Shown here piece after piece: positions 10,011-55,550 of a stretch of DNA of 64,000 nucleotides. Every line of letters starts with the position of its first letter. The stretch's first letter is position 1. Location: assembly GCA_963575745.1 (NCBI GenBank), contig CAUYUJ010001392.1, positions 417,759 to 481,758 on the forward strand, written 5' to 3'. Both the position numbers and the translations under genes were made by a program. The notes beneath the pieces are model-generated. The model was given only the letters and a program-made list of their open reading frames with translations, searched no databases and was not told the origin of the DNA. This DNA is from Prorocentrum cordatum. Taxonomy: Eukaryota; Sar; Dinophyceae; Prorocentrales; Prorocentraceae.

Positions 10011-10115
10011 TGATGTCGAGCTCCAGTTTCACCTCCCACATCTCAGTGAGCAGCGTCAGAGCCCACGGCCACTGCTCGCCCTTCTCGCACGCGCTGGTCC
10101 CAGCGCTGTAGCTGA
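10011..10115 (-). CDS. PPR repeat island, last of the chain
   Basis: Encodes one 35-residue pentatricopeptide repeat, SYSAGTSACEKGEQWPW then ALTLLTEMWEVKLELDII. PPR repeats are helical hairpins that read RNA base by base, usually in organelle RNA processing. The island is exactly 105 bases and starts at T just after CTAG. It ends at the A of an ATC codon, so flanking phases are 1 at both sides. If read on, the frame stops at about 9952. This is the least canonical of the ten repeats (LELDII for LEPNVI), so it may be decaying. Other islands of the same gene or gene relic lie upstream at 17.1, 23.9, 29.6, 38.0, 49.4, 52.6 and 55.5 kb. Confidence 0.7.
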
Positions 10116-10144
10116 CTAGGGCCGACCCGTGGACACCGTCCACG
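10116..10144 (-). other. hairpin plus CTAG terminus
   Basis: CGTGGAC-ACC-GTCCACG (10128-10144) is a 7-bp stem with a 3-base loop. On the minus strand nine bases and CTAG follow, then the PPR island. Same arrangement as at about 20 other loci. Confidence 0.8.
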
Positions 10145-10260
10145 ACATCTTTCAGGAATGGTTCTCGGAGGGACGGCTAATATTTTGCCGAAAACCTATA
10201 AGCACGGCGGCGGCGGGGGCGGCGGCAACGAGACCGCGCTTTCGTATGGCCTGTATGGCC
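10135..10260. repeat. 120-bp dispersed unit, copy 1
   Basis: GGAATGGTTCTCGGAGG, CGAAAACCTATAAGCACGG and GCGGCAACGAGACCGCGC recur in order at 38085-38215 and 40615-40770. In all three it abuts the hairpin, so it is the inner edge of one module type. Confidence 0.85.
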
Positions 10261-10339
10261 GCCGTGGGCACCGTGGACACGAGGAAAACGTATGTGTTCA
10301 AATTGTACGTCTTCCCACGCTTTGTGGCGAATTTTGCTT

Positions 10340-11559
10340 CTGGGAGCCCTCTTTTGGACGTCTCTTAGAAGGCTCGGAGGCCTCCTTTGATTTTTTTTGG
10401 GGGGGGGGCTCTTGGGGCCGTCTTGGGCGTTGGGCCTTCTTAGGCCGTTTGGGGGGGTCTTGGGCGCCTGTAGGGCTGCCTCGGGCCCGTCCTCTTCTAG
10501 CCCTCTTGGGCTGTCCTGGGCGCCTCTTGGGCTGTCCTGGGGCCGCCCGGGACCGTTCTGGGGCCCCCTGGAAGCTCTCATGGGGCGATCTTGGGGGCCA
10601 GTATGGCTGTCGTGGGCGCCGTGGACACGAGGAAAGCGAATATGTTAAAATTGTGCGGTTTCCCAAGGTTTGGGGCGCAGCACTCTTGGATGTCTCTTGG
10701 AAGGGCTTGGAAGCCTCCTTTGGGCCTCTTCGAGGCCTCTTGGGGCCGTCTTGGGCGCCTCGTGGGCCGTCTTAGGCCGTTTATGTAGGGCGGTCTCGGT
10801 CGCCTCTGGGGCTGCCTCGGGCCCGTCTTGCGCCGCTCTTCGAGCCCTCTTGGGCTGCCCTGGGCGCCTCTTGGGCTGTCCTGGGGCCGCCTTGAACCGT
10901 CCTGGGGCCCCTGGGAGCCCTCTTAGGGCGTCTTGGGGCGATCTATGTTAAAATTGTGCGTCTTCTCTCGGGATTGGGACGAATTTTGCTTCTGAGCCCT
11001 CTTGGACGTCTCTTGGAAGGAATTGGAGGCCTCCTTTGGGCCTCTTGGGTCCGTCTTGGGCGCCTCTTGGGCCGTGTCAAGCTGTTCAGGGTGGTCTTGG
11101 GCGCCTCTAGGGCTGTCTCGGGCCCGTCTTGTGCCGCTCTTCGAGCCCTCTTGGGCTGTCCTGGGCGCCTCTTGGGCTGTCCTGGGGCCGCCTGGGACCG
11201 TTCTGGGGCTCCCTGGAGGCCCTCTTGCGGCGTCTTGGGGCGATCTTTGGGGCCTGTATGGCCGTCTTGGACGCGTTGCGGACGCAAAGCGCAGGAATTG
11301 CAAAAATGCAAGTTTTCCCTAGGGATTGGGACGATTTTTCCTTGTTCGAGCTCTCTTGGGCCGTCGGGAGGCCATCTTGGACGTCGTGGAGCGCTCTTGG
11401 ACCTTTTCGGAGGCCCTCTTGGGCCGTCTGGGGCCGTCTTGGGGCCCTCGTGAAGGCCTCCAGGGGCGTCTCGGAGCGCTCTTGGGCCATCTTGGAGCGT
11501 CTCCGAGCGCGCCGGGGCCTGCTGGGGCTCGCAGGGGCCTGCTACGCCATTTTGGTCCG
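10340..11559 (+). repeat. TCTTGGG block with class C motifs
   Basis: Degenerate TCTTGGG repeats. The AT-richer class C motif appears at about 10265, 10610, 10940 and 11275 (GTGGACACGAGGAAA... GATTGGGACGAATTTTGC), roughly every 330 bases. The block is therefore a higher-order repeat of four units. Confidence 0.8.
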
Positions 11560-11632
11560 AATCGCCTCTCTCACACGCGCGGGGCCCTGCACTGTAGTAT
11601 AGACTAGGGCGAACCCGTGGACTTCGCCCACG
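11560..11632 (-). pseudogene. PPR-start relic and hairpin terminus
   Basis: After CTAG the minus strand reads TCTATACTACAGTGCAGGGC, which aligns with the first bases of a PPR island, then leaves PPR similarity. The hairpin CGTGG...CCACG keeps the outer pairs with one inner mismatch. Confidence 0.65.
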
Positions 11633-11639
11633 ACCTTCG

Positions 11640-12285
11640 GGTCCCCCACGGTGCGCCTCGCAGGCTCTGGAAACTTACTTCTGCTTGTCCTGTCGCAACC
11701 TGAGGGCGGGCGCTGCCTCCTCCGAGGGATAGTTCGGGAGCTCCTCGGAGCTTCCTTTCGGCAGCCTGGACGCCTCCGGCGGCGCCCCCGGGGCGTGGGC
11801 GCCGCTCGGCCTCCTGGGGGCCTCTTGGGGCTCTCTTGGGCCGTCTTGGGTGCCGCTGGGGCCGCCCAGGGCCGTCTTGGGCGCCTCTGCGGCCGTCTAA
11901 ATATCGTCTTGGCGCCGTCTTGGGCAGCTCTTGAGGCTGTCTTGGATGCCTCTTGGGTTGTCATGGGCGCCTCAGGAGCCGTCCGGATGCTGTGTTGGGC
12001 CCTCTTGGGGCCCTCATGTGGCTGCCCTGAGAGGTCTTGAGGCACTCTTGGGAGCCTGTATGGCCGCCGTGGAAACGTCGGAGACGAAAAGCACGGGAAT
12101 TACGAAAATGATGGTTTTCCCTAGGAGTTGTGACGATTTATTCATGTTCGGGCCCTCTCGGGGCCCTTCTCGGTGCCCCGTCGGGACGTTCTGGAGGCGT
12201 CTAAGCCATGTAGAAGGAACTTTGGGCGCCTTGGAGTCTCTCTTGGACGGCCTTGGGACCCCTTGGCTGTAAGGGCGCGAAGGGG
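11640..12285 (+). repeat. TCTTGGG block with one class C motif
   Basis: Class C motif at 12064-12150 (GAAAAGCACGGGAATTACG, CCCTAGGAGTTGTGACG). Confidence 0.75.
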
Positions 12286-12289
12286 TTAA

Positions 12290-12530
12290 ATGCCTTCACT
12301 TTGAAAGTGAGTTTCAAAGTTTCGTGACTTTGCATTACTGTAAAGTTTCGTTGGAAGTCAAAGTGAAAGTCGGGGCGACTTTGACTTTGGGTTCTAACAA
12401 AATTTTCAAAGTGGGTTTGAAAGTCAAAGTGGAAGTACTTTCGCTGTGACTTTCAAACCCAACGTAAAAGTCGACGTCTTCGACTTTAACCTTGACTTTC
12501 ACTAGACTCTGAAAGTGAAATAACAGATGA
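12290..12530. repeat. ACTTTGAAAGT-type repeat, left flank of TG tract
   Basis: Repeats of AAAGTC/GACTTTC in both orientations, so this stretch can fold on itself. The same words recur at 13405-13450 on the other side of the TG-rich tract. Confidence 0.8.
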
Positions 12531-12539
12531 AGATTACTA

Positions 12540-13404
12540 GGACCGTGGGTGCGGGAAGTGAGTGTGTGTGTGTGTTGTGTGTCGGGAGCTGTGGGGTGTG
12601 TCGGTGTGTGTGTGTCGGTGTGTGTGTGGGTGTTTGCGGCTGTGTGTGAGAGTTAGTAGAGGTGTGTGTGTGTGTGGCTGAGTTTCTGGGGTGCTTCTGG
12701 TATTTGTATCAGTGTGTCTGTGGTGTGTGCTTGTGTGTCTGTTGGTGTGTGTAGGTGTGTGGGTGTCTATGTTGGGGGGGTGTCTAGGGTGGGGAGCATG
12801 TATCTTCAACCGAGGTTACCGCTGGTGGACTCGTAGTGGCTCTTTCTCATGAAGTTCTCTCGTCAAGTTTGAGGTCTGTGTATGAGTGTGTTGGTGTGTG
12901 TGTGTTGGTGTGTGTGTGTGTGCGTCGGTGTCTGTGGGAGTGGTGCGGGTGTGTCTGAGGGGGTTGTTTGTCAAGGTGTGTGGGGGTGTGGGGGGGGGAG
13001 GGGCTGTCTTCGTGTGGTGGGTTTTCTGGGCCGTGGCGGGAACGTGGGGGTGTGTAGGGGGTTTATAGCTGTGTATGGGGTCTTTGTGGAGGTGTGTGAA
13101 GGTGTGTGTATGGCTCTGTGTGTGGGGGTGCATGCGAGTGTGGCTGTGTGTGAGGAAGTTGTTGTGCAGGTGTGTGTGTGTGGGTTGGTGTGTATAGGTG
13201 TGTGTGTGTGTCCGTGTATATGTGGGTGTGTGTGGTTCTGAGTGAGGGGCTGTCTGTGGGGGTCTAAGGGTGTGGGTGGAGGTGCGTGTCTCGGTGTGTG
13301 TGGTGTGTGTGTGGGTGTGTGAGTGAGTGTGTGTGGGTGGGTGGGTGAGTGTGTGGGTGGGTGTGTGGGTGTGCGGGTGGATGTATGGGTGTGGGTGTGT
13401 GGGT
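12540..13404 (+). repeat. TG-rich tract
   Basis: About 860 bases of GTGTGTG, GGGTGTG and TGTGGG. Long Cys/Val/Gly or His/Thr frames here are artefacts of the repeat. Confidence 0.95.
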
Positions 13405-13449
13405 CGTGCCACTTTGACTTTGGGTTTGAAAGTGGGTTTCAAAGTGGGT

Positions 13450-14389: not shown

Positions 14390-14460
14390 GCGCTTCTGGC
14401 ACGCGCGGGGCTCTGCAATGCAGCAGAGACTAGGGCCGGCCCGCGGCAGTCCGGGCGCGG
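14390..14460 (-). pseudogene. PPR-start relic with decayed hairpin
   Basis: CTAG at 14430-14433 is followed on the minus strand by TCTCTGCTGCATTGCAGAGC, matching the other relics. The stem has decayed to CCGCG/CGCGG. Confidence 0.5.
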
Positions 14461-15506: not shown

Positions 15507-15575
15507 CCTTCTCGCACGCAAAGATCGCTGCATGGCAGAAGAGACGATTGCGAAACCGTGGATTACACCCACGGT
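15507..15575 (-). pseudogene. PPR-start relic and hairpin terminus
   Basis: Minus strand TTTGCGTGCGAGAAGG matches the ACEKG codons. The hairpin ACCGTGG/CCACGGT (555-561 with 569-575) keeps seven pairs around a longer loop, and CTAG has become a variant tetranucleotide. Confidence 0.55.
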
Positions 15576-17049: not shown

Positions 17050-17154
17050 TGACATCTGGCTCCAGCGTCGCCTCCCGCATCCCGCTCAGCAGCGACAGAG
17101 CCCGCTGCCACTGCTCGCCCTTCTCGCACGCACTCATCCCAGCGTTGTAAATGA
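17050..17154 (-). CDS. PPR repeat island
   Basis: One 35-residue PPR repeat, IYNAGMSACEKGEQWQR then ALSLLSGMREATLEPDVI. The island is 105 bases, begins right after CTAG (17155-17158) and ends GATGTC A|TC. The first residue is Ile instead of Ser. Downstream on the minus strand the DNA enters another weak PPR-start relic (TGCGCGTGCGAAAATGG near 17030) before the repeat block. Confidence 0.75.
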
Positions 17155-17183
17155 CTAGGGCAGACCTGTGGACTCCGTCCACG
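17155..17183 (-). other. hairpin plus CTAG terminus
   Basis: Stem TGTGGAC (17167-17173) with GTCCACG (17177-17183), loop TCC; the outermost pair is a T-G wobble. CTAG lies at 17155-17158. Confidence 0.8.
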
Positions 17184-18299: not shown

Positions 18300-18347
18300 C
18301 GCCCTTCTGGCACGCACTGGGCCCTGCAATGTAGTAGAGATGACTAG
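18300..18347 (-). pseudogene. PPR-start relic without hairpin
   Basis: CTAG at 18344-18347, then TCATCTCTACTACATTGCAG on the minus strand. The hairpin position holds an unpaired sequence. Confidence 0.5.
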
Positions 18348-18517
18348 GGCTGACCCCTGAAATGACGCCCACGAGTGCCAATGGTCAGAATACCACTGCT
18401 GCTGCTCACTGCTTCAGGGTACGCCGTTTGCTTGGTGATTCTGAAGTCTGCCAGAGCAGCGCTAGCAGGATCAGCGGTGGCAGATCTTGGGGCATGGATA
18501 GTAGCAACAGCAGCAGC

Positions 18518-19232
18518 TCCACCTCCTCCTCCTCCTTTTCCTCCTCCTCCTCCTCCTCATCATCCTCCTCCTCCTCCTCCTCCCTCCTCCTCCTCCTCCT
18601 CCTCCTCCTCCTCCTCCTCCTCCTCCCTCCCTCCTCCTCCTCCTCACTCCTCCTCCTCCTCCTCCTCCTCCTCCTCCTCCTCCTTCTCCTCTACCTCCTC
18701 TACCTCCTCTACCTCCTCCTCTCCTCCCTCCTCTCCTCCTCCCTCCTCCGCCTCCTCCTCCTCCTCCTCCTCCTCCTCCTCCTCTCCTCCCTTCCTCCTC
18801 CTCCCTCCTCCTCCTCCCTCCTCCTCTCCTCCTCCTCCTCCTCCTCTCCTCCTCCTCCTCCTCCTTACCTCCTCCCTCCTCTACTCCTCTATCTCCTCCT
18901 CCTCCTCCTCTCCTCTCCTCCTCCTCCTCCTCCTCCTCCTCCTCCTCCTCCTCCTCCTCCTCCTCCTCCTCCTCCTCCTCCTCCTCCCTCCTCCTCCTCC
19001 TCCTCCTCCTCCTCCTCCTCCTCCTCCTCCTCCTCCTCTCCTCCTCCTCCTCCTCCTCCCTCCTCCTCCTCCTCCTCCTCCTCCTCCTCCTCCTCCTCCT
19101 CCTCCTCCTCCTCCTCCTCCTCCTCCTCCTCCTCCTCCTCCTCCTCCTCCTCCTCCTCCTCCTCCTCCTCCTCCTCCTCCTCCTCCTCCTCCACCTCCTC
19201 CTCCTCCTCCTCCTCCTCCTCCTCCTCCTCCT
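18518..19232 (+). repeat. (CTC)n tract of about 700 bases
   Basis: Almost pure CTC with a few TAC, CCC and CAT interruptions. Poly-Ser, poly-Pro and poly-Leu frames over it are artefacts. Its length makes it prone to assembly collapse. Confidence 0.97.
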
Positions 19233-19242
19233 TCCTTTTCTC

Positions 19243-19263
19243 CCGTAGCCATTTTGGCTCAAG
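19243..19263 (+). other. spliced-leader (DinoSL) relic
   Basis: CCGTAGCCATTTTGGCTC plus AAG matches 21 bases of the 22-base dinoflagellate spliced leader. Only the variable first base differs (C here). Known biology: this leader is joined to mRNAs by trans-splicing from a separate SL RNA, so finding it in front of a reading frame in genomic DNA marks a reverse-transcribed mRNA. An SL RNA gene is not indicated, because no GT donor follows the leader (AAG is followed by TTCG). Confidence 0.9.
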
Positions 19264-19421
19264 TTCGAAACCTTGCCGCGAGGCTTCGAGCTTGTCCGCA
19301 GCTGTGCGGCAGGCTCGAGTCGCTGGCTGTGGCCACAGGGGATTTTGCAACCACGGCACTCCTGCAAGGGGTGTGTCTGCTGTTTCTCGTTCTTCCAGTT
19401 GTGTGCGCTCCCGCCGCCGCG

Positions 19422-20861
19422 ATGTCGTGGCGCCAGCGCGCCCCCTGGCGTGGTGGCGGGCGCCGCAAGAACTCCCAGGGCCAGGGCAAGCAGCCGTATG
19501 TCTGCGGGGATTGCGGCCACTGGGAGTACAAGTCCTTCGGCAACTTCTGCTGCTCGAAGTGCGGGGGGAAATATCTCACGGCGAGCGTGCAGCACCCGCA
19601 TGCGCCAATGATGACAATGCTGAGCTACGTGCCGCCGCCGCCCTTCTGCTCGCTGCGAAGCCCGAACTTCGAGATGGATTTGCTCTATCTGTTCAAGGTG
19701 AAGCCCCAGTTCAGCCTGAATGGTCTGCGGCACGCTTGCAAAATGCAGCCAGTGCTGAGCGCACCCGCCTCACCCGAGTTGTTGAAGATGCGGCGAAGGC
19801 AGTGCGCTTGGCATCCCAAGATGTACATCATCGCAAGACGAAGGTGCAGAAGCTCGAGGAACAGCTGGTCGAGGCGAGGGAGTTCCTGGCCACGGACACG
19901 GCTGCCCACGAGAAGGCTGCACAATGCAAACGCGACGCTGATGAGGCGCTCCAGAGCTTCAACAAGGAGGTTTGGATGGAGGAGAAGCGCAAGGATCAAC
20001 GTCGTGCTCGAGAAGAAGCTCTTCTCTTGTGCTCGCGAAGAAGCTGAAGCTGCTCGAGGGCCTCCACAGGGAGCTGAGGTACATGGAGGGGGTTGCGAAC
20101 ATCGTGGTGGTCGTGAAGAGCCTTCTCCTGCTGGCGCTCGCGTGGATCCTGAGAGCATTCCCAACCTGGGCGACATGGACGAGGCCGCCATCCGTGCCTA
20201 TGCCGTGGAGAAGGGCCTTCCTCTGGAACCCCTGCTACAGTTCCAGAAGATGTCCACGAAGCTTGCTCAGGACGTCGAGATGGATGCTGAAAGGGAGGCC
20301 AGTGCTTCACCGCGGGCTCCGCGTCCGTCATGGCGCGGCGGGCGGCACGCCTGGGCGTCGCCACGAGCGGCAGGGCGGACATGCCCCACTCCTTCGGGCG
20401 CAGACGCTTTCCTCCGCCTCCTCCTCCTCCTCATCCTCCTCCTCCTCCTCCTCCTCCTCCTCCTCCTCCTCCTCCTTCTCCTCCTCGTCGTCGTGATTGG
20501 CCTGTCCTCGTCCTCCGCCTCCTCCTGCTCCTCCTCCTCCTCCTCCTCCTCCTCCTCCTCCTCCCTCCTCCTCCTCCTCCTCCTCCTCCTCCTCCACCCT
20601 CCTCCTCCTTCTCCTTCTCCTCCTCCTCCTCCCTCCTCCCCTCCTCCTCCTCCTCCTCCTCCTCCTCCTCCTCCTCCTCCTCCTCCTCCTCCTCCTCCTA
20701 CTTGTCCTCCTCCTCTTCGCCCTCCTCTTCCCCCTCCCGGAAGTCGTACGGTTCCGACTCCACCAGCAGGAGCGCCTGTGGCGGAGAAGAGCGACGACGG
20801 GGAGGAGACGGAGGAAGCCCAATGTGATTGGAATAAGCAGACCAAACAAAACCAAACATAG
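19422..20861 (+). pseudogene. retrocopied zinc-ribbon/coiled-coil protein, frameshifted
   Basis: The first ATG lies about 160 bases after the leader and starts MSWRQRAPWRGG. A CxxC pair (YVCGDCGHWEYKSFG) followed by NFCCSKCGGK gives a four-cysteine zinc ribbon within the first 50 residues. From about 19600 to 20040 the coding signal moves to another frame with a clear coiled coil (KVQKLEEQLVEAREFL). It then passes through the third frame (AKKLKLLEGLHREL) and returns to the first (LGDMDEAAIRAYAVEKGLPL). At least three frame changes make this non-functional as it stands. The first frame stays open through a (CTC)n tract (20410-20705) to a stop at 20859-20861. Zinc ribbon plus coiled coil recalls the first ORF of dinoflagellate LINEs; that identity is inference, and a cellular gene is possible. 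Confidence 0.6.
20410..20705 (+). repeat. (CTC)n tract inside the retrocopy
   Basis: CTC repeat with short interruptions. It either expanded inside the inserted cDNA or marks its 3' edge, in which case the copy would have landed inside a larger CTC array. Confidence 0.9.
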
Positions 20862-20869
20862 TCAAAACA

Positions 20870-21031
20870 CCCCCCCCCCTCAAAAAAAACAACAAACAAA
20901 CAAACAAACAGACAAACAAACAAACAAACAAACAAACAAACAAACAACAACAGCAGCAACAACAACAACGACAACAGCAGCAGCAACAACAACAACGCCA
21001 ACAGCAACAACCACAACAGCAACAACAGCAA

Positions 21032-21100
<69 letters not shown>

Positions 21101-21130
21101 CCACAACAACAACAACAGCAAAAAAAAAAA
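20870..21130 (+). repeat. A-rich tail: (AAAC)n, (AAC)n, A10
   Basis: Just after the stop of the retrocopied frame: an AAAC run, then AAC units, ending in a run of ten A. Poly(A) tails of LINE-made copies commonly decay into such microsatellites, so this probably marks the 3' end of the insertion. Confidence 0.8.
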
Positions 21131-21559
21131 CTGGGACACGCTCAGCGCGGGAGGTTTCCGTGGCTGGATCGGACGACAGCTATTTTCTGCAACCCCTCAC
21201 GCGCGAGAGGTGTCCCAAGAGGTTTGGTGTGTGTGTGGCTCTTTCCGATCACCTCGTGCTTTCTTGGAGCCTATCGGAGCCACTTGAAGGAAGCTACTGG
21301 AGGCCTTCCGGTAGCCTGTGGGTGCTGTTTTTTTCCATTCAACGAGGGCCTTCTGGGAGCATGCGAGGGCCGCTGCTGAAGGCTTTCCAGGACCCTCTGT
21401 TGAGGGATGAAAAAACGACCCTACCCTGGGTTACAAGTGCGTGGTCTGTAAACCTCCTGGGAAACCCCAAAGCCTAGAGCCGCCAGGACGCGGCACATCA
21501 TGCAAGGTTTACCCTGTCAGCCCACAAGAGTTTCAGCGCACAGCGCCTCGTAAACCAGG
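21131..21559. other. unassigned sequence
   Basis: No gene recognised. TACCCTGG(G/T)TTAC occurs at 21422 and inverted near 21553, a weak inverted pair about 130 bases apart. Confidence 0.45.
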
Positions 21560-22269
21560 GTAGGGGCGTTTTTTATGCCCTTGACTCTGGGGAGTGTCCT
21601 GGAGGCCCTCTGTGAGCCTGGGGAACTTCTTCAGGGCTTGCTGGCCGTGGGAGGGGGCGAGACGGGGACGGAAGGGGGGCCCCTCTTGGACCAGTTTGGA
21701 CCGTCTTGGGGGCCTGGGCCGTCTTGGGGCCATGTTGGGGGTCTCGAGCCGTCTTGGAGCCCGCTTGGGGCTCTCGTGGGCAGCTCTTGGGGCCCTTGGG
21801 GCTGTCTTGGGAGGCACTTGGGGCTCTACTGGGCCGTCTGGAAGCTGTCTTGGGCCGTCCCGGGCCGCTCTTGGGCTGTCTTGGGGGCTCTCTCCGAGGC
21901 TTCTTGGGCCGTGTTGGAGCGATCTGGGAGAGCCATGGAGCCGTCTCGGGCTGTTCTGGGCCCGATATGGGGAGAACCCGAAAATTGCTCAAAACATCCA
22001 GAAGGTCTATGAGTTTGAACTCGCTGGGCCGTCATCGGAAGCTTCTGGGGCCGTCTTGGGAGCCTCCTGGCTTGCTCTAGGGCCGCCCTGAACTGCTGCA
22101 GGGCTCGCTTGGGGTCCTCTTGGGCCGTCTGGGTGCCCTCTTGAGCGGCTCTAAACTGTCTTGGACCGCCTTGGAGCCTGGTCACGGCCGTCCGGGGCCG
22201 TCCGACCGGTTGCCCCGGGAGCGCCAGCGACCGTCTAGGACCGCCCTGGGAGCGCTGAGAGCCGCCCTG
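21560..22269 (+). repeat. TCTTGGG block
   Basis: Dense GCCGTCTTGGG repeats with one short AT-richer insert near 21970-22020 (GAGAACCCGAAAATTGC). Confidence 0.8.
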
Positions 22270-22320
22270 GGCCGAGTTCCGCCGGTGCCATCTCGCACGC
22301 GCTGATCCCGTCAGCCATCG
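22270..22320 (-). pseudogene. PPR-start relic
   Basis: Minus strand reads ADGISACEMAP, matching NAGISACEKG. No CTAG or hairpin is left beside it. Confidence 0.5.
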
Positions 22321-22339
22321 TGTCCGGCCTTTGCTTCTT

Positions 22340-22523
22340 GCTGCTTTCTTCTCTAGACTGCCTGCTGCTGCTGCTGCTTGTGAACAGTGCGCCTGCTTGG
22401 ATTGGCTTGCTGCTTGCTCATTGCTTGCTTGCTGGCTTGATTGGTGCTTGCTGCTTGCTGCTTGCTTACTTGCTTGCTTACTTGCTTGCTTACTGGCTTA
22501 CTGGATTGTTGCTTACTTTTTGC

Positions 22524-22588
<65 letters not shown>

Positions 22589-22620
22589 ATTGCTTGCTTG
22601 CTTGCTTGCTGCTGCTGCTT
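22340..22620 (+). repeat. (CTTG)n tract
   Basis: GCTTGCTTGC units; the same kind of tract lies at 28.43 and 48.06 kb in front of related modules. Confidence 0.92.
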
Positions 22621-22739
22621 GATGCCGAAAATTATACTGGTGCTCTCATGGGCTGAATCTGGGCCTTCTCATGCTCTCTGTGGGGCTTCTTGGTCTACCT
22701 TGGAGCCTGGCTGGGCCTTCGCGGGGTAAGGGGCGTCTT

Positions 22740-23090
22740 GGGCCGCCCTGGAACGAGGTTGAGCCGCCTTGGGGCCGCATTCGAGCCAAGGCTGGACATC
22801 ACGAAGTGCATGTGCGCCTTATCTTCCAAGGATGTTCCATGGTGGCTCTGGCCGCCCGAGGAGGTCAGAGGATGCGCGCGAGCTGCGTAGGCTCGGAAGA
22901 AGCTCGAAGGTACTGCGGAGCATGCCCCCAATGGCTGGCCTGGCCAGAGCACCCTCAGGCAGAACTACCCGACGACTCGCCCACTCAGACCGGAGCCGAT
23001 CCGCAGAAGGGGAAAATGAAGAAGCGCATAGGCGCCTTATGATCCTGGGCGGCTGGCGCGGTCCCAGAGCTCTCTGAGGGATCTTCCCTC
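22740..23090. repeat. 350-bp dispersed repeat, copy 1
   Basis: AAGGATGTTCCATGGTGGC, GAGGTCAGAGGATGCGCGCG and CGGAGCATGCCCCCAATGGC recur in this order at 28610-28975 and, more diverged, at 32510-32865. It ends with GGTCCCAGAGCTCTCTGAGG, an end also seen alone at 45110 and 47065. Confidence 0.88.
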
Positions 23091-23099
23091 GGCAGACTC

Positions 23100-23560
23100 T
23101 TGGATACGGTTTTCGGCGTGTCTGAAAGCTCTTGGGGACCTCCTCTTGAGGCCTGCTTCGGGTCTCCTGGGGAGTCTGAAAGCCCCATGGGGGCCTGCTG
23201 GAGGTCTCAAGGATCCTCTTGGGGCCGTCTTGGGGCCGTCTTGGGGCCCTCTTGTGGCCGTCTTGATCCGTCTTCGGGGCCTCTTCGGCCGTCTTGGGGC
23301 CTTCTTGAACTGTCTGGGGGCCCTAGGGGGAACCTGTTGGGCCGTCTTGAGGCGATACTGGGGGCCTCTCGGGCCGTCTTGGAGTGTCGGAAGCCCGAAA
23401 AGGCGAGAACGCTAAAATCCCTCAAAAACCGAATGGAAACCAATTACGTTGGCCTTTCGGGGGCCTCTTGGGGGGCCTCTTGGAGCCCTCTTGGAGCCCT
23501 CTTGGGCCGTCTAGGGGAAGTGTTGGGCCGTCTGGAGGCTACGGCGGGCTGAAAAAAATT
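23100..23560 (+). repeat. TCTTGGG block with class A motif
   Basis: Class A motif at 23384-23455 in its clearest form: CGGAAGCCCGAAAAGGCGAG, AACGCTAAAATCC, CAAAAACCGAATGGAAACC. Confidence 0.85.
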
Positions 23561-23888
23561 GAAACAAAAATCCTTGCCATCTCTTGGGAAGCCGATTTCT
23601 ACTTCCGCCGGATTCCGCTTGCCTTCCGCCGGCTCCCGCCGGCGGAGGTGGCCGCGTTTTATTTCCGCCGCCTTCCGCCGACATTCGATTCTCGAAGGCG
23701 GGGCCCTTTCTTGAATGCCTTGTACTGGCGACCTTTTGGACAGTCTGTAAGCGTCTCGATCCATCTTGCACCGTCTTGCGGCCTTCTTCGGCCATCTTGG
23801 AGCGCGCCGGGGCCTGCGGGGCCGATTTGTACCCACTTGAGCACCATGCATTCTGGCACATGCTGCCCCCAGCGATAGATTGTATCAA
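23561..23888. other. CCGCCGG-rich spacer
   Basis: TTCCGCCGGATTCCGCTTGCC-type words repeat over 23600-23695 and can pair with each other. On the minus strand a weak PPR-start relic (CGCTGGGGGCAGCATGTGCC) follows the island at 23889. Confidence 0.5.
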
Positions 23889-24203
23889 TGACGTTGGGCT
23901 CCAGCTTCGCCTCCCACATCTCGCTTAGCAGCGCCAGAGCCCGCTGCCACTGCTCGCCCTTCTCGCACGCGCTGATCCCAGCGCTGTAGCTGACGACGTT
24001 GGGCTCCACCTTCGCCTCCCGCATCTCGGTCAGAAGCACCAGGGCCCGCGGCCACTGCTCGCTCTTCTCACACGCGCTGATCCCGGCGTTGCAGCTGATG
24101 ACATTGGGCTCCAGCTTCGCCTCCCGCATCTCGCTTAGCAGCGCCAGAGCCCGCTGCCACTGCTCGCCCTTCTCGCACGCGCTGATCCCGGCATTGTAGC
24201 TGA
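23889..24203 (-). CDS. three consecutive PPR repeats, uninterrupted
   Basis: Three 35-residue PPR repeats in one 315-base frame. Repeat one starts SYNAGISACEKGEQW, two is SCNAGISACEKSEQW, three is SYSAGISACEKGEQW. Each continues (Q/P)RAL(A/V)LL(S/T)EM and ends EPNVI or EPNVV. Joins at 24098/24099 (GTC A|TC AGC) and 23993/23994 (GTC G|TC AGC) lie at the point where all other islands are cut, so they show the uninterrupted state. The frame is open upstream to about 24381. This is the best-preserved PPR coding stretch in the window. Function is presumably sequence-specific RNA binding; target unknown. Confidence 0.85.
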
Positions 24204-24232
24204 CACGGGCTGACCCGTGGCCTTCGGCCACG
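24204..24232 (-). other. hairpin terminus, covariant stem
   Basis: CGTGGCC-TTC-GGCCACG (24216-24232). Compared with the common CGTGGAC/GTCCACG stem, the sixth pair is C-G instead of A-T, changed on both sides. The tetranucleotide next to the PPR island is changed too (CGTG on the minus strand). Confidence 0.8.
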
Positions 24233-25759: not shown

Positions 25760-25825
25760 AAAGCCCGCGCGCGCTCGCCCCTGCGCTGCAGGAGAGGCTA
25801 GTGCTGACCCGTGGACTGCGTCCAC
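25760..25825 (-). pseudogene. PPR-start relic and hairpin terminus
   Basis: CTAG at 25798-25801. Hairpin GTGGAC-TGC-GTCCAC at 25811-25825 is perfect. The relic (CCTCTCCTGCAGCGCAGGGG) has drifted. Confidence 0.6.
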
Positions 25826-27679: not shown

Positions 27680-28269
27680 ACTCGGCGCGGTCCGCGGCAG
27701 GGTGCGGGGGCCGCAGCGCCCGAGCCCCGAGGCGCCAGGCAGAGCGTGGCACGCCGCCCTCGCGCGGCATGTCGCCCTCGGCTCCGCGAGGGCTCAGACG
27801 CCGCCCCGCCGCCGACAGGAGGTCCCGCCCTCGCTCCCGGAGCTGTCGTGGAGCGCTCCCGGGCGGCGTCGAGGCTCCGATCGGGGCCTTTTGGGGGGAG
27901 TCTTGGGGCGTCTTGGGAAGATCTGGGAGCTGTCTTGGGCTGTCGTCGGGCGAAGTGAGGAGAACCCGGGAGTCCTTAAAAAATCGAGCAGGAACTCAGT
28001 GATGTCTGCCTCCTCGGGCGGTCTGCGTTGTGCTCCTGGGCCCTCCTGGGAGCTTCCTGGGAGCATTCTCTTGGCCCCTGGGGCGGTCTTCAGGAGATCT
28101 TGGGCATTTTGGAGCGCTCGCAAGCCGTCACGGAGGCGTCCTGGACTAGCTTGGGGACCGCGGACAGAATTCAGCACGGCAACTTCTCCGTGTGGGATTT
28201 CGTCCGCACCTCGCCGAGGACGCCGGAGCCGCAACGCAACGTTTTTGGACCCTCTTAGTTCCAAGGCCC
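27680..28269 (+). repeat. GC-rich sequence and TCTTGGG block
   Basis: Weak TCTTGGG repeats with one AT-richer insert near 27955-28010 (GGAGAACCCGGGAGTCC) comparable in position to class A or B motifs. Confidence 0.6.
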
Positions 28270-28332
28270 TTTTCGCAAGCACATAAGCTTGCAATGTTGG
28301 TAAGACGAGGGCTGACCCGTGGACTCCGCCCA
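28270..28332 (-). pseudogene. PPR-start relic and hairpin terminus
   Basis: Minus strand TATGTGCTTGCGAAAAGGG matches ACEKG codons. GTGGAC/GCCCAC stem has one mismatch; CTAG is CTCG. Confidence 0.55.
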
Positions 28333-28369
28333 CATCAGCCAGCGAGTGGTTGTCACTGTCCGCTTATTT

Positions 28370-29592: not shown

Positions 29593-29697
29593 TGACATTG
29601 GGTTCCAGCTTCGCCTCCCACATCTCGCTCAGCAGCGCCAGAGCCCGCGGCCACTGCTCGCCTTTCTCGCACGCGCTGATGCCAGCGCTGTAGCTGA
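29593..29697 (-). CDS. PPR repeat island
   Basis: One 35-residue PPR repeat: SYSAGISACEKGEQWPR, ALALLSEMWEAKLEPNVI. Exactly 105 bases, ending GTC A|TC. Unlike most islands it has no CTAG or hairpin directly upstream; the minus strand there reads CTTGACCTGCCAGC. Reading on past the end meets TAA at once, so the island must be spliced or is a relic. Confidence 0.75.
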
Positions 29698-31329: not shown

Positions 31330-31393
31330 CTCGCACGCGCAACGACCAGAACTGAAGCACAGACTAGTGATAACCCGTGGACTCCGTCCACGG
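31330..31393 (-). pseudogene. PPR-start relic and 8-bp hairpin terminus
   Basis: CTAG at 31364-31367. CCGTGGAC-TCC-GTCCACGG (31375-31393) is a perfect 8-bp stem. The relic keeps GCGCGTGCGAG only. Confidence 0.65.
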
Positions 31394-31957: not shown

Positions 31958-32029
31958 AGAGGCCCTTCTCGCACGCACGTGCTCCTGCGTTGTAAGAGAG
32001 ACCAGGGGTGACCCGCGGACTGCGTCCGC
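31958..32029 (-). pseudogene. PPR-start relic and covariant hairpin
   Basis: Minus strand reads SYNAGARACEKGL after CTGG, one of the best-kept relics, then loses PPR similarity. Hairpin GCGGAC-TGC-GTCCGC (32015-32029): the second pair is C-G where others have T-A. Confidence 0.7.
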
Positions 32030-32062
32030 TTGCGGGGACAACAGTGCCGCCAGGCGCGCTCG

Positions 32063-35040: not shown

Positions 35041-35480
35041 GAGATCCTGCGCGAGAGTGTGCAGAGAAAACAAGAACACCACTTAGGATGTGGGGAACAA
35101 TTTCGAGCACCCGGAAAAGTGTCGAAACAGTGTCGGACGAGTGTCTCCCAGGGCCCGCCGCGTGAAAACTCTCGAGCTTCGGTACTTTCCTGGTGCTCGA
35201 AATTCTTTCTCGCGATCGAGGCTAAAGTAGGCTGGAACATCATGACTCGCGGGACCCTTGCGGGACACCTCTCGGAGCGTCTTCCTCCCGCCCCCATGGG
35301 GCCGTCTTGGCCTCGGGAGCCGCCTCGGCGCCCTCTGGCAGCGGCTCGGAGCCGTCTCGGGGCCGTCCGAGGCCGCCTGGGGACCCTCCGAGGCCGTCGC
35401 ACGGCGCCCCGCGGGCTCCAGGGCCGCCCCGGAGGGCCGCGGGGCCTCAATCGGGCGCCACGACACGGATGTAGGAGAGA
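35041..35480. other. unassigned with a fragment shared with 48.25 kb
   Basis: GGTGCTCGAAATTCTTTC followed by AGGCTGGAACATCATGA (35190-35245) matches 48270-48325. Otherwise a weak GGGCCGTC-type block. Confidence 0.55.
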
Positions 35481-35510
35481 CTATGGGGCTGACACGTAGA
35501 CTGCGTTCAC
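35481..35510 (-). other. decayed hairpin terminus
   Basis: CTAT, nine bases, then GTAGAC-TGC-GTTCAC: four pairs, one wobble and one mismatch of the usual six. The PPR-start relic beside it is barely recognisable (TCTCTCCTACATCC on the minus strand). Confidence 0.5.
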
Positions 35511-35519
35511 AACATCTGC

Positions 35520-37030: not shown

Positions 37031-37130
37031 NNNNNNNNNNNNNNNNNNNNNNNNNNNNNNNNNNNNNNNNNNNNNNNNNNNNNNNNNNNNNNNNNNNNNN
37101 NNNNNNNNNNNNNNNNNNNNNNNNNNNNNN
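37031..37130. other. assembly gap (100 N)
   Basis: Exactly 100 unknown bases inside the minisatellite; the array length is therefore unreliable. Confidence 1.
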
Positions 37131-37960: not shown

Positions 37961-38065
37961 TAACGTCGAGCTCCAGGTTCACCTCCCGCATCTCGCTCAG
38001 CAGCGCCAGGGCCCGCTGCCACTGCTCACCCTTCTCGCAAGCGCTGATCCCAGCGTTGTAGCTGA
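37961..38065 (-). CDS. PPR repeat island
   Basis: One 35-residue PPR repeat: SYNAGISACEKGEQWQR, ALALLSEMREVNLELDVI. 105 bases, starting right after CTAG at 38066-38069 and ending GTT A|TC. The frame is open upstream through the hairpin (reads DGIHGPALV). LELDVI differs from LEPNVI at two positions. Confidence 0.78.
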
Positions 38066-38094
38066 CTAGGGCTGGCCCGTGGATTCCGTCCACG
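38066..38094 (-). other. hairpin plus CTAG terminus
   Basis: CGTGGAT-TCC-GTCCACG (38078-38094), innermost pair a T-G wobble. CTAG at 38066-38069. Confidence 0.8.
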
Positions 38095-40558: not shown

Positions 40559-40629
40559 CCCGCCCTTCTCGCACGCGCGGGGCCCTGCAATGTAGTAGAG
40601 ACTAGGGCTGAACCGTGGACTCCATCCAC
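40559..40629 (-). pseudogene. PPR-start relic and hairpin terminus
   Basis: CTAG at 40602-40605, then minus-strand LYYIAGPRACEKGG. It keeps the start of the PPR repeat and then turns into the repeat block. Hairpin GTGGA/TCCAC has an inner C-A mismatch. Confidence 0.65.
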
Positions 40630-40770
40630 AACATCTTTCTGGAATGGTTCTCGGTGGAACGGCGGAGATTTGCCAGAAACCTATAAGCACGGCAGCGGCC
40701 GGAGCGGCAGCAGCGAGAACGCGCCTTGGTGTCCGAGCTCTTGCAGCACTCCAGCAGCTGGGCCCTGGCG
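40615..40770. repeat. 120-bp dispersed unit, copy 3
   Basis: GGAATGGTTCTCGGTGGAAC, CCTATAAGCACGGCAGCGG; shares GTGTCCGAGCTCT with copy 2. Confidence 0.85.
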
Positions 40771-42032: not shown

Positions 42033-42104
42033 AGAGACCCTTCTCGCACGCACTGTTCCCAGTATTGTAAGAGAGATAGGGCTGACCCGTTGACTACGTC
42101 CACG
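42033..42104 (-). pseudogene. PPR-start relic and hairpin terminus
   Basis: Minus strand reads SYNTGNSACEKGL, well kept. Hairpin CGTTGAC-TAC-GTCCACG has one mismatch; CTAG has become CTAT. Confidence 0.62.
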
Positions 42105-42129
42105 AAATCTACACGACCTGGCATGTGGT

Positions 42130-46294: not shown

Positions 46295-46367
46295 AGTGCC
46301 TTCTCGTACGCAGAGGTTCCAGCAGTGTAGAAGAGACCAGCGCTGATCCGTGGCCTACCGGCCACGG
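46295..46367 (-). pseudogene. PPR-start relic and covariant 8-bp hairpin
   Basis: Hairpin CCGTGGCC-TACC-GGCCACGG (46348-46367), eight pairs, sixth core pair changed to C-G on both sides. Minus strand after CTGG reads FYTAGTSAYEKA. A PPR-end relic (GKLGPSAITKAFRQHS) lies at about 46400-46450. Confidence 0.68.
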
Positions 46368-47862: not shown

Positions 47863-47933
47863 ATTACCTTCTCGCACGCTGAGGCTCTGGCATTGTACAA
47901 GAGACTAGGGCTGCCCCGTGGACCCCGTCTGCG
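47863..47933 (-). pseudogene. PPR-start relic and hairpin terminus
   Basis: CTAG at 47905-47908, then minus-strand LYNARASACEKV. Stem GTGGAC/GTCTGC is damaged. Confidence 0.62.
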
Positions 47934-47949
47934 TCGACCAGCGTGTCCA

Positions 47950-49393: not shown

Positions 49394-49498
49394 TGACGTT
49401 GGGCTCCAGCTTCGCCTCCCACGTCTCGCTGAGCAGCGCCAGACCCTGCTGCCACTGCTTGCCCTTCTCGCACGCGCTGATCCCAGCGCTGTAGCTGA
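49394..49498 (-). CDS. PPR repeat island
   Basis: One 35-residue PPR repeat: SYSAGISACEKGKQWQQ, GLALLSETWEAKLEPNVM. 105 bases, ending GTC A|TG. Here CTAG (49523-49526) is separated from the island by 24 bases that look like a second, shorter PPR start (TCTCTCCCACACTGCCCC on the minus strand). Confidence 0.75.
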
Positions 49499-52586: not shown

Positions 52587-52691
52587 TGACGTTTGGCTCC
52601 AGCCTCGCCTCCCGCAGCTCGCTGAGCAGCGCCAGGGCCCGCTGCCACTGCTCGCCCTTCTGGCACGAGCTGATCCCAGCGTTGTAGCTGA
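52587..52691 (-). CDS. PPR repeat island
   Basis: One 35-residue PPR repeat: SYNAGISSCQKGEQWQR, ALALLSELREARLEPNVI. 105 bases, directly after CTAG (52692-52695) and ending GTC A|TC. Joined to the next island upstream (55446) it would continue the PPR register without a gap. Confidence 0.8.
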
Positions 52692-52719
52692 CTAGGGTGT
52701 ACCCGTGGACTACGTCCAC
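52692..52719 (-). other. hairpin plus CTAG terminus
   Basis: GTGGAC-TAC-GTCCAC (52705-52719), perfect six pairs. Confidence 0.8.
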
Positions 52720-52734
52720 TTGCGAAGTGATGGG

Positions 52735-52812: not shown

Positions 52813-52964
52813 ATTGGGGAGCATGGGAGATGAGGAGGCTCGATCGGGCCATGCGCAAAACGCACTGGGAACGGAGGCGCGATGGAGCAGCCGGGGGAGA
52901 AGAACATGGATATCTTCCCATCCACCTCATTATCCTTATGTTGCTCCTGTTCCTCCTCCTCCTC

Positions 52965-53126
52965 CATTTCCGTCTCCTCCTCCTCCTCCTCCTCCTCCTC
53001 CTCCTCCTCCTCTCCTCCTCCTCCTCCTCCTCCTCCTCCTCCTCCTCCTCCTCCTCCTCCTCCTCCTCCTCCTCCTCCTCCTCCTCCTCCTCCTCCTCCT
53101 CCTCCTCCTCCTCCTCCTCCTCCTCC
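52965..53126 (+). repeat. (CTC)n tract
   Basis: Nearly pure CTC with one TCC slip. Confidence 0.96.
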
Positions 53127-53329
53127 CCCTGACTCCCTCATCCTTCTCAGTGCCCTCCTGATCATCCTCGTCCTCCTCATCCTGTCCATCATCCTCTTCA
53201 TGCTCCTCTCCTTCGGGTTCTCCCGCCTGATCTTCTGCAGCGTTGGAACGCAGCGCGACAGCACCCTTCGGCAAGGCGTCAAAAAATGCGGTTGCGTCGA
53301 AGGCGTCGGCAGGGCCCAGTCTCGCGGCG

Positions 53330-54360
53330 TCTTCCTAGGCCTCTCTTGGGGCTCTCTTCGAAGTTCCTGAGATCTTCTTGGGCTCCTTTCGGGGGTTCCT
53401 CGCGGTTTCAAGGCCGTCTCGGGAGGGGCCGCGAGGGCGCAAGGACGGAACAAAACAGAGCTTCGAGGTGTTCGTTTTGAGGAGCGCTCAAAACGGACAG
53501 TGCCCAGCCACTGGTGGGGTTTTCCCAGGCCTCTCTCGGGGCTCCCTTCGAAGCGTCTGAGATCTTCTTCGGCTCCTTTGGGAAGGTCCTCCCGGCTTCA
53601 AGGCCGTCTTGGTAGGGGCCTCGAGGGCGCCAGGACGGAACCAAAATGAGCTTCGAGGTGTTCGTTTTGAGGGGCGCTCAAAACGAACAGTGCGTGGCCT
53701 CTCGCGGGATCTTCCTAGGCCTCTCTCGGAGCTCTCTTCGAAGTTCCTGAGATTTCCTTGGGCTCCTTTGGGTGGCTCCTCGCGGCTTCAAGGCCCTCTC
53801 GGTAGGGGCCTCCGGGGCGCCAGGACGGAACCAAAAAGAGCTTCGTGGTGTTCGTCTTGAGGGGCGCTCAAAACGACCAGAGCGCGGCCTCTCGCGGGGC
53901 CTTCCTACGCCTCTGGGGGGGCTCTCTTCGAGGCTCCTGAGATCTTCTTGGGCTCCTTTGGGAAGCTCCTCGCGGCTTCAAGGCCGTCTCGGGAGGGGCC
54001 TCGAGGGCGCCAGGACGGAACCAAAATGAGCTTCGAGGTGTTCGTTATGAGGAGCGCTCAAAACGAACAGTGCCCAGCCCCTGGTGGGGATTTCCCAGGC
54101 CTCTCTCGGGGCTCTCTTCGAAGCGTCTGAAATCTTCTTCGGCTCGTTTGGGGGGGTCGTCGCGGCTTCAAGGCCCTCTTGGAAGGGGCCTCGAGGGCGC
54201 AAGGACGAAAACAAACAGGGCTTCGAGGTGTTCGTTTTGAGGGGCGCTCAAAACGAACAGTGCCCAGCCCCTGGTGGGGCCTTCCCAGGCCTCTCTCGGG
54301 CTCTCTTCGAAGCGTCTCGCGGCCTTCGGGGGCTCCTCGCGGTTTCAAGGCCGTCTCGGG
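53330..54360. repeat. 190-bp satellite with internal hairpin
   Basis: CTTCGAGGTGTTCG recurs at 53459, 53647, 53838, 54028 and 54221, spacing 188-193. Each unit carries the inverted repeat TGTTCGTTTTGAG / CTCAAAACGAACA around a 5-base loop. Sub-unit words GGCCTCTCTCGGGGCTC and CTTCAAGGCCGTC link it to the TCTTGGG blocks. Confidence 0.92.
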
Positions 54361-55400
54361 AGTGGCTCGTTTTCCCGAGGAAACGCTTCTTTTTCCCCTC
54401 CTCAGACGCTCCTGCCGTCGCGTGTTGGAGTGTCTTGGGCCATCGTGGGCGCGAGGGGGAGGCTGCTGAGCTTCCAGGGCGCCTCCGGGGAGGCGTCTCG
54501 GAGCGGCCTGCAGGCAGCCTCGGAGCCGTGCTGGAGTCGACCAGAGCTTCCAGGTGTTCGTTTTGAAGGGGCACTCAAAACGAACAGCACCCAGCCCCCT
54601 GGTGGGGCCGCAAAGAACGCGAGGGCGCGGGGAGAAGCACGCAGCGGGAGCTCGCAGGGAGCCTCGTCGGCAGGAACGTCGAAGTGGCTGGCTTCCCCGA
54701 GAAAATGTGTCTATTTTTCCCTCCTCAGGCGCTCCTGCGGGCGCGTGTTAGACCGCTCTGGGGCCATTGTGGGCGCGCGGGGGAGGCTGCTGAGCTTGCA
54801 GGGCGCCTCCAGGGAGCGTCTCGGAGCGCCCGAAGAGATCCCAAGAGAGCCCGGAGGAGGCCGCGGAGGGCCGGAAGAGGGCCCCGAGGCGCCAGAAGGG
54901 CCGGACAGGGGGCCCGAGGCAACCGAAAAGAACGCGAGGGCGCGGGGAGAAGCACGCACCGGGAGCTGGCAGGGAACCTCGTCAGCAGGAAGTTGAAAGT
55001 GGCTCGTTTTCCAAAGGAAACGCCTCTTTTTCCCCTCCTCAGACGCTCCTGCCAGCGCGTGTTGGAGTGTCTTGGGCCATCGTGGGCGCGAGGGGGAGGC
55101 TGCTGAGCTTCCAGGGCGCCTCCGGGGAGGCATCTCGGAGCGTCTCGGAGAGGCCTGGGGCAGCCTCGGAGCCGCGCTGGAGTCAACCAGAGCTTGCTGG
55201 GGCGCCCGGGGAGGGCTCCGGAGGGGCCGGCCCGGCCATCGTGGGCGCGAGGGGGAGGCTGCTGAGCTTCCAGAGCGCCTCCAGGGAGGCATCTCGGAGC
55301 GTCTCGGAGCGGCCTGAGGCAGCCTCGGAGCCGCGCTGGAGTCGACCAGAGCTTGCCGGGACGCCCGGGGAGGGCTCCAGAGAGGCCGGCCCGCGGCCAC
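54361..55400. repeat. about 315-bp tandem repeat
   Basis: CCCTCCTCAGACGCTCCTGCC near 54400 recurs near 54720 and 55035; GGGGGAGGCTGCTGAGCTTC near 54455, 54780, 55093 and 55252. Derived in part from the neighbouring 190-bp unit (TGTTCGTTTTGAAGGGGC at 54550). Confidence 0.85.
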
Positions 55401-55445
55401 TGCGTTACAATTTGGCGAGCGGTGAACGCTGCATTGTAGTAGAGA

Positions 55446-55550
55446 TGACGTCGGGCTCCAGCGTTGCCTCCCGCATCTCGCTCAGCAGCGCCAGAGCCCG
55501 CGGCCACTGCTCGCCCTTCTCGCACGCGCTGATCCCAGCGCTGTAGCTGA
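55446..55550 (-). CDS. PPR repeat island, first of the chain
   Basis: One 35-residue PPR repeat: SYSAGISACEKGEQWPR, ALALLSEMREATLEPDVI. 105 bases, ending GTC A|TC. The following minus-strand bases (TCTCTACTACAATGCAGCG) again look like a PPR start that fades out. The upstream tetranucleotide is CAAG rather than CTAG. The frame is open upstream through the hairpin to 55755. Confidence 0.8.

What the first reader, a model, noticed from the sequence alone, without database searches (positions are those of the whole stretch)
10011..55550. PPR repeats isolated as exact 105-base islands over 45 kb
Eight loci on the minus strand hold PPR repeats. Seven are single repeats of exactly 105 bases (10011, 17050, 29593, 37961, 49394, 52587, 55446) and one is a triple of 315 bases (23889). 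All are cut at the same codon position (GTC A|TC AGC), so any order of joining keeps frame and repeat register. One exon per repeat, separated by 3-11 kb of satellite DNA, is an unusual gene architecture. No standard GT/GC/GA donor is visible at the 3' edge of the islands, so ordinary splicing is not obvious.
Basis: partly seen in the sequence, partly recalled or inferred. Interest (0 to 1): 0.9.

Follow-up and report, generated by a model that had tools for sequence, protein, structure and literature searches.

The report
Duplicated PPR cassettes in dinoflagellate DNA
A stretch of dinoflagellate DNA carries about two dozen copies of one duplicated unit, some holding zero, one or three copies of an RNA-binding protein repeat, so the sharp 105-base islands most likely reflect shared ancestry plus the natural repeat length and are not proven to be a new kind of gene splicing.

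Summary
The eight islands are real. The source is Prorocentrum cordatum or a close dinoflagellate; the repeats are SACEK-type P-class PPR units. The flanks are not featureless satellite. Before 6 of 8 islands lies a covarying hairpin (GTGGAC-NNN-GTCCAC), followed in four by CCCTAG. At least 12 further minus-strand loci carry the hairpin element joined directly to a 38-base PPR-head-like stretch with no full repeat. So the unit is hairpin linker, then n full repeats: n = 0, 1 or 3 here, and 1, 2, 3 or 5 in other short contigs. Modules are mostly same-strand duplications. Identical edges then follow from common descent plus a 105-base period. Islands are better conserved than flanks and lack indels, so coding constraint or homogenisation is likely. 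Splicing of single 105-base exons at A|TC is unproven: AG at the left edge is no commoner at islands (5/8) than at empty sites (9/14), and no GT/GC/GA sits at the right edge. Public gene models carry off-frame PPR text in 85 of 172 proteins. The rest of the genome could not be searched.

The parts
10011..10115 (-). PPR island, n=1
   Evidence: hairpin and CCCTAG upstream
17050..17154 (-). PPR island, n=1, with hairpin and CCCTAG upstream, tail-like sequence downstream, and a PPR second half 105 bases upstream of the island
23889..24203 (-). PPR island, n=3; hairpin GTGGCC/GGCCAC upstream, but CCCGTG instead of CCCTAG
   Evidence: Pfam PPR_2 E 2.6e-18
29593..29697 (-). PPR island, n=1, no hairpin found upstream
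37961..38065 (-). PPR island, n=1; flank about 84% identical to the empty site at 40601
49394..49498 (-). PPR island, n=1; a hairpin/CACTAG element ends 24 bases upstream with a tail-like remnant between
52587..52691 (-). PPR island, n=1
55446..55550 (-). PPR island, n=1, with tail-like sequence downstream; CCCAAG at the left edge
10127..10143 (-). hairpin upstream of island 10011
17168..17182 (-). hairpin upstream of island 17050
24215..24231 (-). hairpin upstream of the triple island
38077..38093 (-). hairpin upstream of island 37961
52703..52719 (-). hairpin upstream of island 52587
55562..55578 (-). hairpin upstream of island 55446
11568..11633 (-). empty (n=0) cassette: hairpin, CCCTAG, 38-base tail
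   Evidence: leave-one-out E 5.4e-15
14393..14459 (-). empty (n=0) cassette, hairpin in a different register
   Evidence: leave-one-out E 2.9e-8
15507..15574 (-). empty (n=0) cassette; 41 upstream codons match protein P0174, where the same flank leads into a PPR repeat
   Evidence: leave-one-out E 9.3e-11
18302..18374 (-). empty (n=0) cassette (CCCTAGTCATCTCTACTAC, three bases more at the join; hairpin broken)
   Evidence: E 1.1e-13, not a seed of the model
25770..25825 (-). empty (n=0) cassette
   Evidence: E 1.4e-10, not a seed
28267..28335 (-). empty (n=0) cassette
   Evidence: leave-one-out E 6.4e-12
31330..31393 (-). empty (n=0) cassette
   Evidence: E 3.9e-11, not a seed
31964..32030 (-). 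empty (n=0) cassette
   Evidence: leave-one-out E 1.7e-14
35469..35512 (-). probable empty cassette, degraded
   Evidence: E 3.5e-5
40564..40631 (-). empty (n=0) cassette, best preserved
   Evidence: leave-one-out E 2.1e-20
42038..42105 (-). empty (n=0) cassette
   Evidence: leave-one-out E 2.5e-13
46299..46367 (-). empty (n=0) cassette
   Evidence: leave-one-out E 6e-13
47867..47934 (-). empty (n=0) cassette
   Evidence: leave-one-out E 6.4e-13

Best explanation
[quoted passage not shown] A module carries a short hairpin linker ending in CCCTAG|TC or a variant, followed by PPR sequence: zero, one or three full 105-base repeats, in some followed by a partial repeat head, then a long intron-like spacer rich in simple repeats. 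Repeat number changes in whole units because the repeats are tandem with period 105 and bounded by TC on both sides, so unequal exchange or short-homology deletion adds or removes 105n bases. The shared edges are inherited from the common module. Full repeats stay well conserved either because some are still coding or because they are homogenised. If translated, each repeat would be one helical-hairpin unit of an RNA-binding solenoid. SHOWN: coordinates, flanks, empty sites, module duplication, hairpin covariation, species affinity. INFERRED: the exchange mechanism, coding constraint, decay, and any splicing.
For: Empty-cassette model: leave-one-out E 2.9e-8 to 2.1e-20 for 9 of 9 seeds, 3 more non-seed empty sites at E <= 1.4e-10, 31 of 31 matches at E <= 1 on the minus strand; of 10 first-order Markov controls 8 gave no match at E <= 1 and the best was 0.22. 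Similar flank with and without a full repeat: 40601 (n=0) against 38065 (n=1), 209 aligned bases at 84%; 15544 (n=0) against protein P0174 (PPR present, cut short), 68% over 41 codons. Long module duplications, e.g. 40632-39985 with 11634-11028 and 29409-28425 with 23504-22558. Of 66 short-contig or EukProt proteins 42 carry linker-like and 22 tail-like text by my patterns; unit numbers there are 1 or 2 in 64 of 66, and 3 and 5 in P0284 and P0211. Hairpin covariation score 0.250 against 0.140 in shuffles (0 of 500 reach it) and at most 0.059 in slid versions. First repeats of the islands: 369 pairwise substitutions and 0 indels over 28 pairs, against 419 and 97 in the upstream 60 bases and 862 and 206 in the downstream 100.
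Against: Coding constraint on the islands is only weakly supported: 50 distinct changes, 20 synonymous against 16.0 expected, 0 stops against 2.2; separately P 0.08 and 0.06, jointly 0.0098, and repeats are not independent. The tail conserved at empty sites is lost or weak downstream of at least 4 of 8 islands. Hairpin or CCCTAG is missing, changed or displaced at 3 of 8 islands (23889, 29593, 49394). Two of five hairpin measures were reached by more than 4% of shuffles: pairs with double change 23 of 500, further pair types 91 of 500. 4 of the 90 self-match rows shown are inverted. Seven pieces of N- and C-terminal ends of P. cordatum PPR models gave no match outside the islands better than E 0.017 among the six best rows per piece. 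The rest of the genome could not be searched: the genome search did not complete.
Confidence: 0.66

Rival explanations
1. One reading: each island is an exon, joined by non-standard introns (TC...CCCTAG) at A|TC, giving one long PPR protein; the hairpin just upstream of AG helps define the 3' splice site.
For: All ten units are open and in one register. Conservation drops sharply at both island edges. A covarying hairpin lies just upstream of the edge. Annotators recognised GT, GC and GA donors (passages of PMC10666404), and many of their models switch frame at this boundary, as expected if the true donor were not among those.
Against: AG at the left edge in 5 of 8 islands but also in 9 of 14 empty sites, so it is not kept for islands (one of the 14, 49522, adjoins island 49394). 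The right edge shows no consensus beyond the repeat itself. Short contigs show arrays read straight through both flanks, though these are only predicted ORFs. Mis-framed models are equally expected for pseudo-exons.
Confidence: 0.14
2. Ordinary splicing at other sites: exons run from an AG in a PPR second half, through the linker (translated in frame), through the full repeats to a GT/GC/GA donor inside the next repeat head (GAGAAG|G).
For: A PPR second half lies upstream of 7 of 23 linkers tested (scores 11-20; null maximum 10 in 300 shuffles); the insert to the next repeat is a multiple of three in 4 of these 7. At empty-type sites the tail is conserved to GAGAAG and then diverges; 11 of 16 such rows continue GGC, GGT, GT or GC. 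P. cordatum donors are GC 51.4, GT 24.7, GA 23.8%.
Against: At most sites the tail is out of the PPR frame by two bases (44401 is an exception), so successive modules would not keep frame. GGC is also what an ordinary repeat has at that point. Three of the 7 inserts are not multiples of three. One upstream second half runs into a stop (52691).
Confidence: 0.22
3. The linker is an introner-like mobile element that inserted at the PPR repeat boundary with a 2-base TC repeat on each side.
For: TC on both sides; hairpin; linker text at the same point in 42 of 66 other short proteins. P. cordatum introns are reported to be enriched in introner elements.
Against: The published definition (8-20 base inverted repeats near both intron ends, 3-5 base direct repeats) is not met by the 7 inter-island spacers: longest exact inverted match between the end 30 bases is 4-7, direct repeat 1-2 bases. 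Module duplication explains the copies without mobility. The linker varies in length: inserts of 53 to 105 bases.
Confidence: 0.1
4. Assembly artefact: collapsed or misjoined repeats.
For: Two runs of 100 N (6509-6608, 37031-37130). A duplicate with about 290 identical bases lies near one of them.
Against: Island repeats differ by about 12% on average and matched modules by about 12-33%, too much for assembly duplication. The same linker-PPR arrangement occurs in many other contigs.
Confidence: 0.03

Closest known systems
SACEK-type P-class PPR proteins of core dinoflagellates (passages of PMC12787238)
   Same: 35-residue repeat with SACEK at positions 9-13, downstream Trp, several consecutive repeats; P. 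cordatum named as rich in them
   Different: The passages read do not describe single-repeat islands, the hairpin linker, empty cassettes, or repeat number 0/1/3 at fixed edges
Introner elements of dinoflagellates (passages of PMC7789003 and PMC10666404)
   Same: Hairpin near a possible exon edge, non-standard edges; introners reported as enriched in P. cordatum introns
   Different: Local hairpin at one end only, 1-2 base instead of 3-5 base direct repeat, no exact inverted repeat of 8 or more between the two ends
Unidirectional tandem gene blocks in the dinoflagellate Polarella (passages of PMC7245778)
   Same: Tandem, mostly one-strand duplication; PPR among the over-represented domains of that genome
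   Different: There single-exon genes; here modules with mostly degraded coding content
Tandem protein-repeat genes with repeat-number change by unequal exchange (general knowledge, no call)
   Same: Whole-unit copy number differences with fixed flanks
   Different: Here the copies are spread over 45 kb and many have no full unit left

Membership tests
P-class PPR repeat | Tandem 35-residue units matching the PPR profiles | tested here: met
   Triple island: PPR_2 66.3 bits (cut-off 30), PPR 39.6 (25); the single island 17050 alone reaches only 17.4 bits, below cut-off. Solved PPR structures match the triple over its whole length
SACEK-type dinoflagellate PPR | SACEK at positions 9-13 and a downstream Trp | tested here: met
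   SACEK in 9 of 10 units (52587 reads SSCQK), Trp in 10 of 10; definition
Functional multi-exon PPR gene | Spliced transcript with a continuous PPR frame | not testable with these tools
   No transcript reads held; predicted proteins only
Functional multi-exon PPR gene | Standard dinoflagellate splice sites at the island edges | tested here: not met
   AG at left edge 5 of 8; GT/GC/GA at right edge 0 of 8
Introner element | 8-20 base inverted repeat shared between the two intron ends, with 3-5 base direct repeats at the boundaries | tested here: not met
   7 of 7 inter-island spacers: longest exact inverted match 4-7, direct repeat 1-2 (exact matches in the end 30 bases only); definition
Conserved nucleic-acid hairpin | Pairs kept through changes on both sides | tested here: met
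   20 hand-picked sites: 91.7% of cells paired, 3 of 6 pairs with double changes (5 cells); score 0.250 against 0.140 shuffled and 0.059 at best when slid; but 23 and 91 of 500 shuffles reach two of the five measures. Sites 14429, 49522, 43416 and 22323 were left out beforehand (other register or no stem)

The most novel reading that the evidence does not exclude
The hairpin-CCCTAG linker marks a genome-wide joint at the PPR unit boundary at which single PPR units are treated as exchangeable cassettes, in DNA and perhaps in RNA through non-standard TC...TAG introns, so that the alga assembles PPR proteins with new RNA-recognition codes from scattered single-unit exons. In support only as far as it goes: residues 5 and 35, which set nucleotide choice, are nearly two-state (S/N in 196 and D/N in 197 of 234 units), and the ten units here carry S/D, N/N, S/N and N/D in mixed order. 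Against it: a position outside the code (R/W) is just as two-state.
Probability: 0.08. Interest if true: 0.88.

Novelty: new variant of a known kind. Interest (0 to 1): 0.4.

Why it matters
It explains a striking genome pattern without new splicing chemistry and suggests that many public PPR gene models of this alga are mis-framed at these boundaries (off-frame PPR text in 85 of 172). The matched empty and filled cassettes offer a direct way to study how repeat proteins gain and lose whole units. If transcripts did join the islands, it would be a modular exon system for RNA-binding proteins.

Tried and rejected
Known RNA families: no Rfam match at gathering thresholds in the window; no tRNA or tmRNA. 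Relatives in the virus and prokaryote collections: none confirmed (the tools say records of the window's own genome may be left out). N- and C-terminal ends of P. cordatum PPR models in the window: matches were to the islands, so no evidence for a complete gene here. Recent clean insertion of PPR units into empty sites: disfavoured because the tail conserved at empty sites is mostly gone downstream of islands. The 91-94% duplicate 5284-6508 / 55713-57030 as an occupied/empty comparison for island 55446: useless, homology stops about 160 bases before the island. Joining whole cassettes (105n + 37 bases) as exons: rejected because the frame would shift each time. Selection on AG at occupied sites: not seen. 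In 40601 against 38065 the 38-base tail aligns with the first bases of the island with a 2-base gap, so 'n=0' may equally be a repeat cut off after SACEK; I keep n=0 as a label for 'no full repeat'. Pfam on nine ORFs found PPR above cut-off in the triple only.
Full report
OBSERVATION. Profile search with the ten repeats returns these units and then only partial, weaker matches, the best at E 6.6e-6. Mean pairwise identity is 0.876, no unit has a stop in the PPR frame, and the 76 differences from consensus are 29 synonymous, 47 non-synonymous and 0 stops. Pfam calls the triple island PPR; the single island 17050 alone stays below cut-off. Solved PPR structures match the whole triple.

SOURCE. 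Of the 120 proteins listed (236 hits in all), 99 bear the name Prorocentrum cordatum and 21 are unnamed ENA entries; longer queries also find other dinoflagellates. The window has 61.7% G+C; P. cordatum is reported at 59.7%, with a mean intron of 4,709 bases and donors GC 51.4, GT 24.7, GA 23.8% (PMC10666404, passages). An exact dinoflagellate spliced leader lies at 19243-19263.

FLANKS. Before islands 10011, 17050, 23889, 37961, 52587 and 55446 lies a hairpin of the form GTGGAC-NNN-GTCCAC or a compensated variant, then, in four of them, CCCTAG. CCCTAGTC occurs 10 times in the window against 1.55 expected; nine are on the minus strand, and those nine sit at cassettes (compared). On 20 hand-picked sites the six-pair stem has 91.7% paired cells, five cells with compensating changes, and a covariation score that no shuffle reached; two of the five measures are less striking (23 and 91 of 500 shuffles reach them), and related sequences can exceed shuffles without structure.

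EMPTY SITES. The same hairpin element, joined directly to TCTCTACTACATTGC...GCGTGCGAGAAG or a variant, occurs without any full repeat. A model from nine such sites recovers each when that one is left out (E 2.9e-8 to 2.1e-20), adds three more at E <= 1.4e-10, and finds the six hairpin-bearing islands; 31 of 31 matches at E <= 1 are on the minus strand; in 10 Markov controls the best was 0.22. Counting doubtful ones, my list has 26 entries, 24 bases to 5.9 kb apart. The tail resembles the first bases of the repeat with two extra bases. Where an empty site (40601) and a filled one (38065) are compared, 209 bases align at 84%, running through the tail into the island with a 2-base gap. The empty site 15544 matches protein P0174 over 41 codons, where the same flank leads into a PPR repeat that is cut short.

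MODULES. Self-comparison gives long duplications that include cassette and spacer at 67-75% identity. Of the 90 rows shown (558 in all), 86 are same-strand and 4 (two matches, each listed twice) are inverted, involving 1373-1955. Outside the 30 bases before the edge and the 38-base tail, identity between empty sites is near shuffled background on average, though particular pairs share hundreds of bases. The first repeat of each island shows 369 substitutions and 0 indels over 28 pairs, against 419 and 97 in the upstream 60 bases and 862 and 206 in the downstream 100. This fits constraint on the repeats or homogenisation among them. A stricter test on 50 distinct changes is only suggestive: synonymous excess P 0.08, no stops P 0.06, jointly 0.0098.

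ELSEWHERE. Of 66 short-contig or EukProt proteins, 64 carry one or two full units by my scoring; 42 have linker-like text (VDxVHGSALV and variants) and 22 tail-like text (ISTTLQGPARAR and variants) by pattern. P0284 has three and P0211 five units after such linkers. These are predicted ORFs of unknown kind and say nothing about splicing. In 172 P. cordatum models, frame-B segments begin at the unit boundary in 50 of 77 cases and end within four residues of it in 61 of 72; PPR-frame segments start near it in 137 of 203 and end near it in 129 of 253; lengths of internal PPR-frame segments fall at 33-38 residues in 31 of 177, 67-73 in 28, and 102-106 in 12. 85 of 172 models contain off-frame PPR text, and 27 VIFSY-type joints occur in 25 models.

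SPLICING. At the left edge AG is present in 5 of 8 islands and in 9 of 14 empty sites, so it is not preferentially kept. At the right edge there is no GT/GC/GA; two islands have an in-frame GT three bases on. A PPR second half precedes the linker at 7 of 23 sites, with inserts of 63, 90, 78, 83, 62, 105 and 53 bases, a multiple of three in four of seven; this is compatible with a linker once read in frame but is no proof. The spacers do not meet the published introner definition. I cannot tell which exon model, if any, is true. No transcript was available.

MECHANISM. The most economical account is duplication of a module, then loss and gain of whole units by exchange between tandem 105-base repeats bounded by TC. 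Identical edges then need no precise cutting machinery. This step is inferred.

LITERATURE. Seven searches, judged from titles and starts of abstracts in partial listings, showed no paper on single-unit PPR islands, this linker or these empty cassettes. I read passages of PMC10666404, PMC12787238, PMC7789003 and PMC7245778 only. PMC11453091 was seen only in listings.

VERDICT. Real and sharply defined, best explained by common descent and repeat period; a new variant of a known kind. The bold reading stays open but unlikely until cDNA is checked.

Noticed in passing
19243-20410, plus strand: Exact 21-base dinoflagellate spliced leader followed by an open frame beginning MSWRQRAPW..., inside the largest gap between cassettes (18343 to 24203): looks like a retro-inserted mRNA on the opposite strand. 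No Pfam match.
   Followed up: partly
5284-6508 and 55713-57030: A 1.2-1.3 kb duplicate (91-94% in two pieces), identical over about 290 bases at 5284-5570 and 55713-55999, ending abruptly on the island side; one copy adjoins a run of N at 6509-6608.
   Followed up: partly
3104-3648 and 58818-60297: Related satellite with a period near 102 bases at both sides of the array, up to 94% identical.
   Followed up: no
55781-55854 and its duplicate 5352-5425, minus strand: Possible short exon starting ATGGAAATGCGCGAAGCC and ending CACAGCAG before GTAATT, with an EMREAGLPSGDEI text like a PPR unit end.
   Followed up: no
proteins P0134, P0142, P0146, P0148, P0153, P0160, P0164, P0174, P0175, P0178: EukProt entries labelled Pyramimonas sp. 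(a green alga by name) carry SACEK-type repeats (exact SACEK in 8 of 10) and, in 5 of 10, the dinoflagellate linker text; contamination is likely.
   Followed up: no
172 P. cordatum models among P0001-P0299: Many public PPR models of this species change reading frame at the repeat boundary and look mis-spliced.
   Followed up: partly
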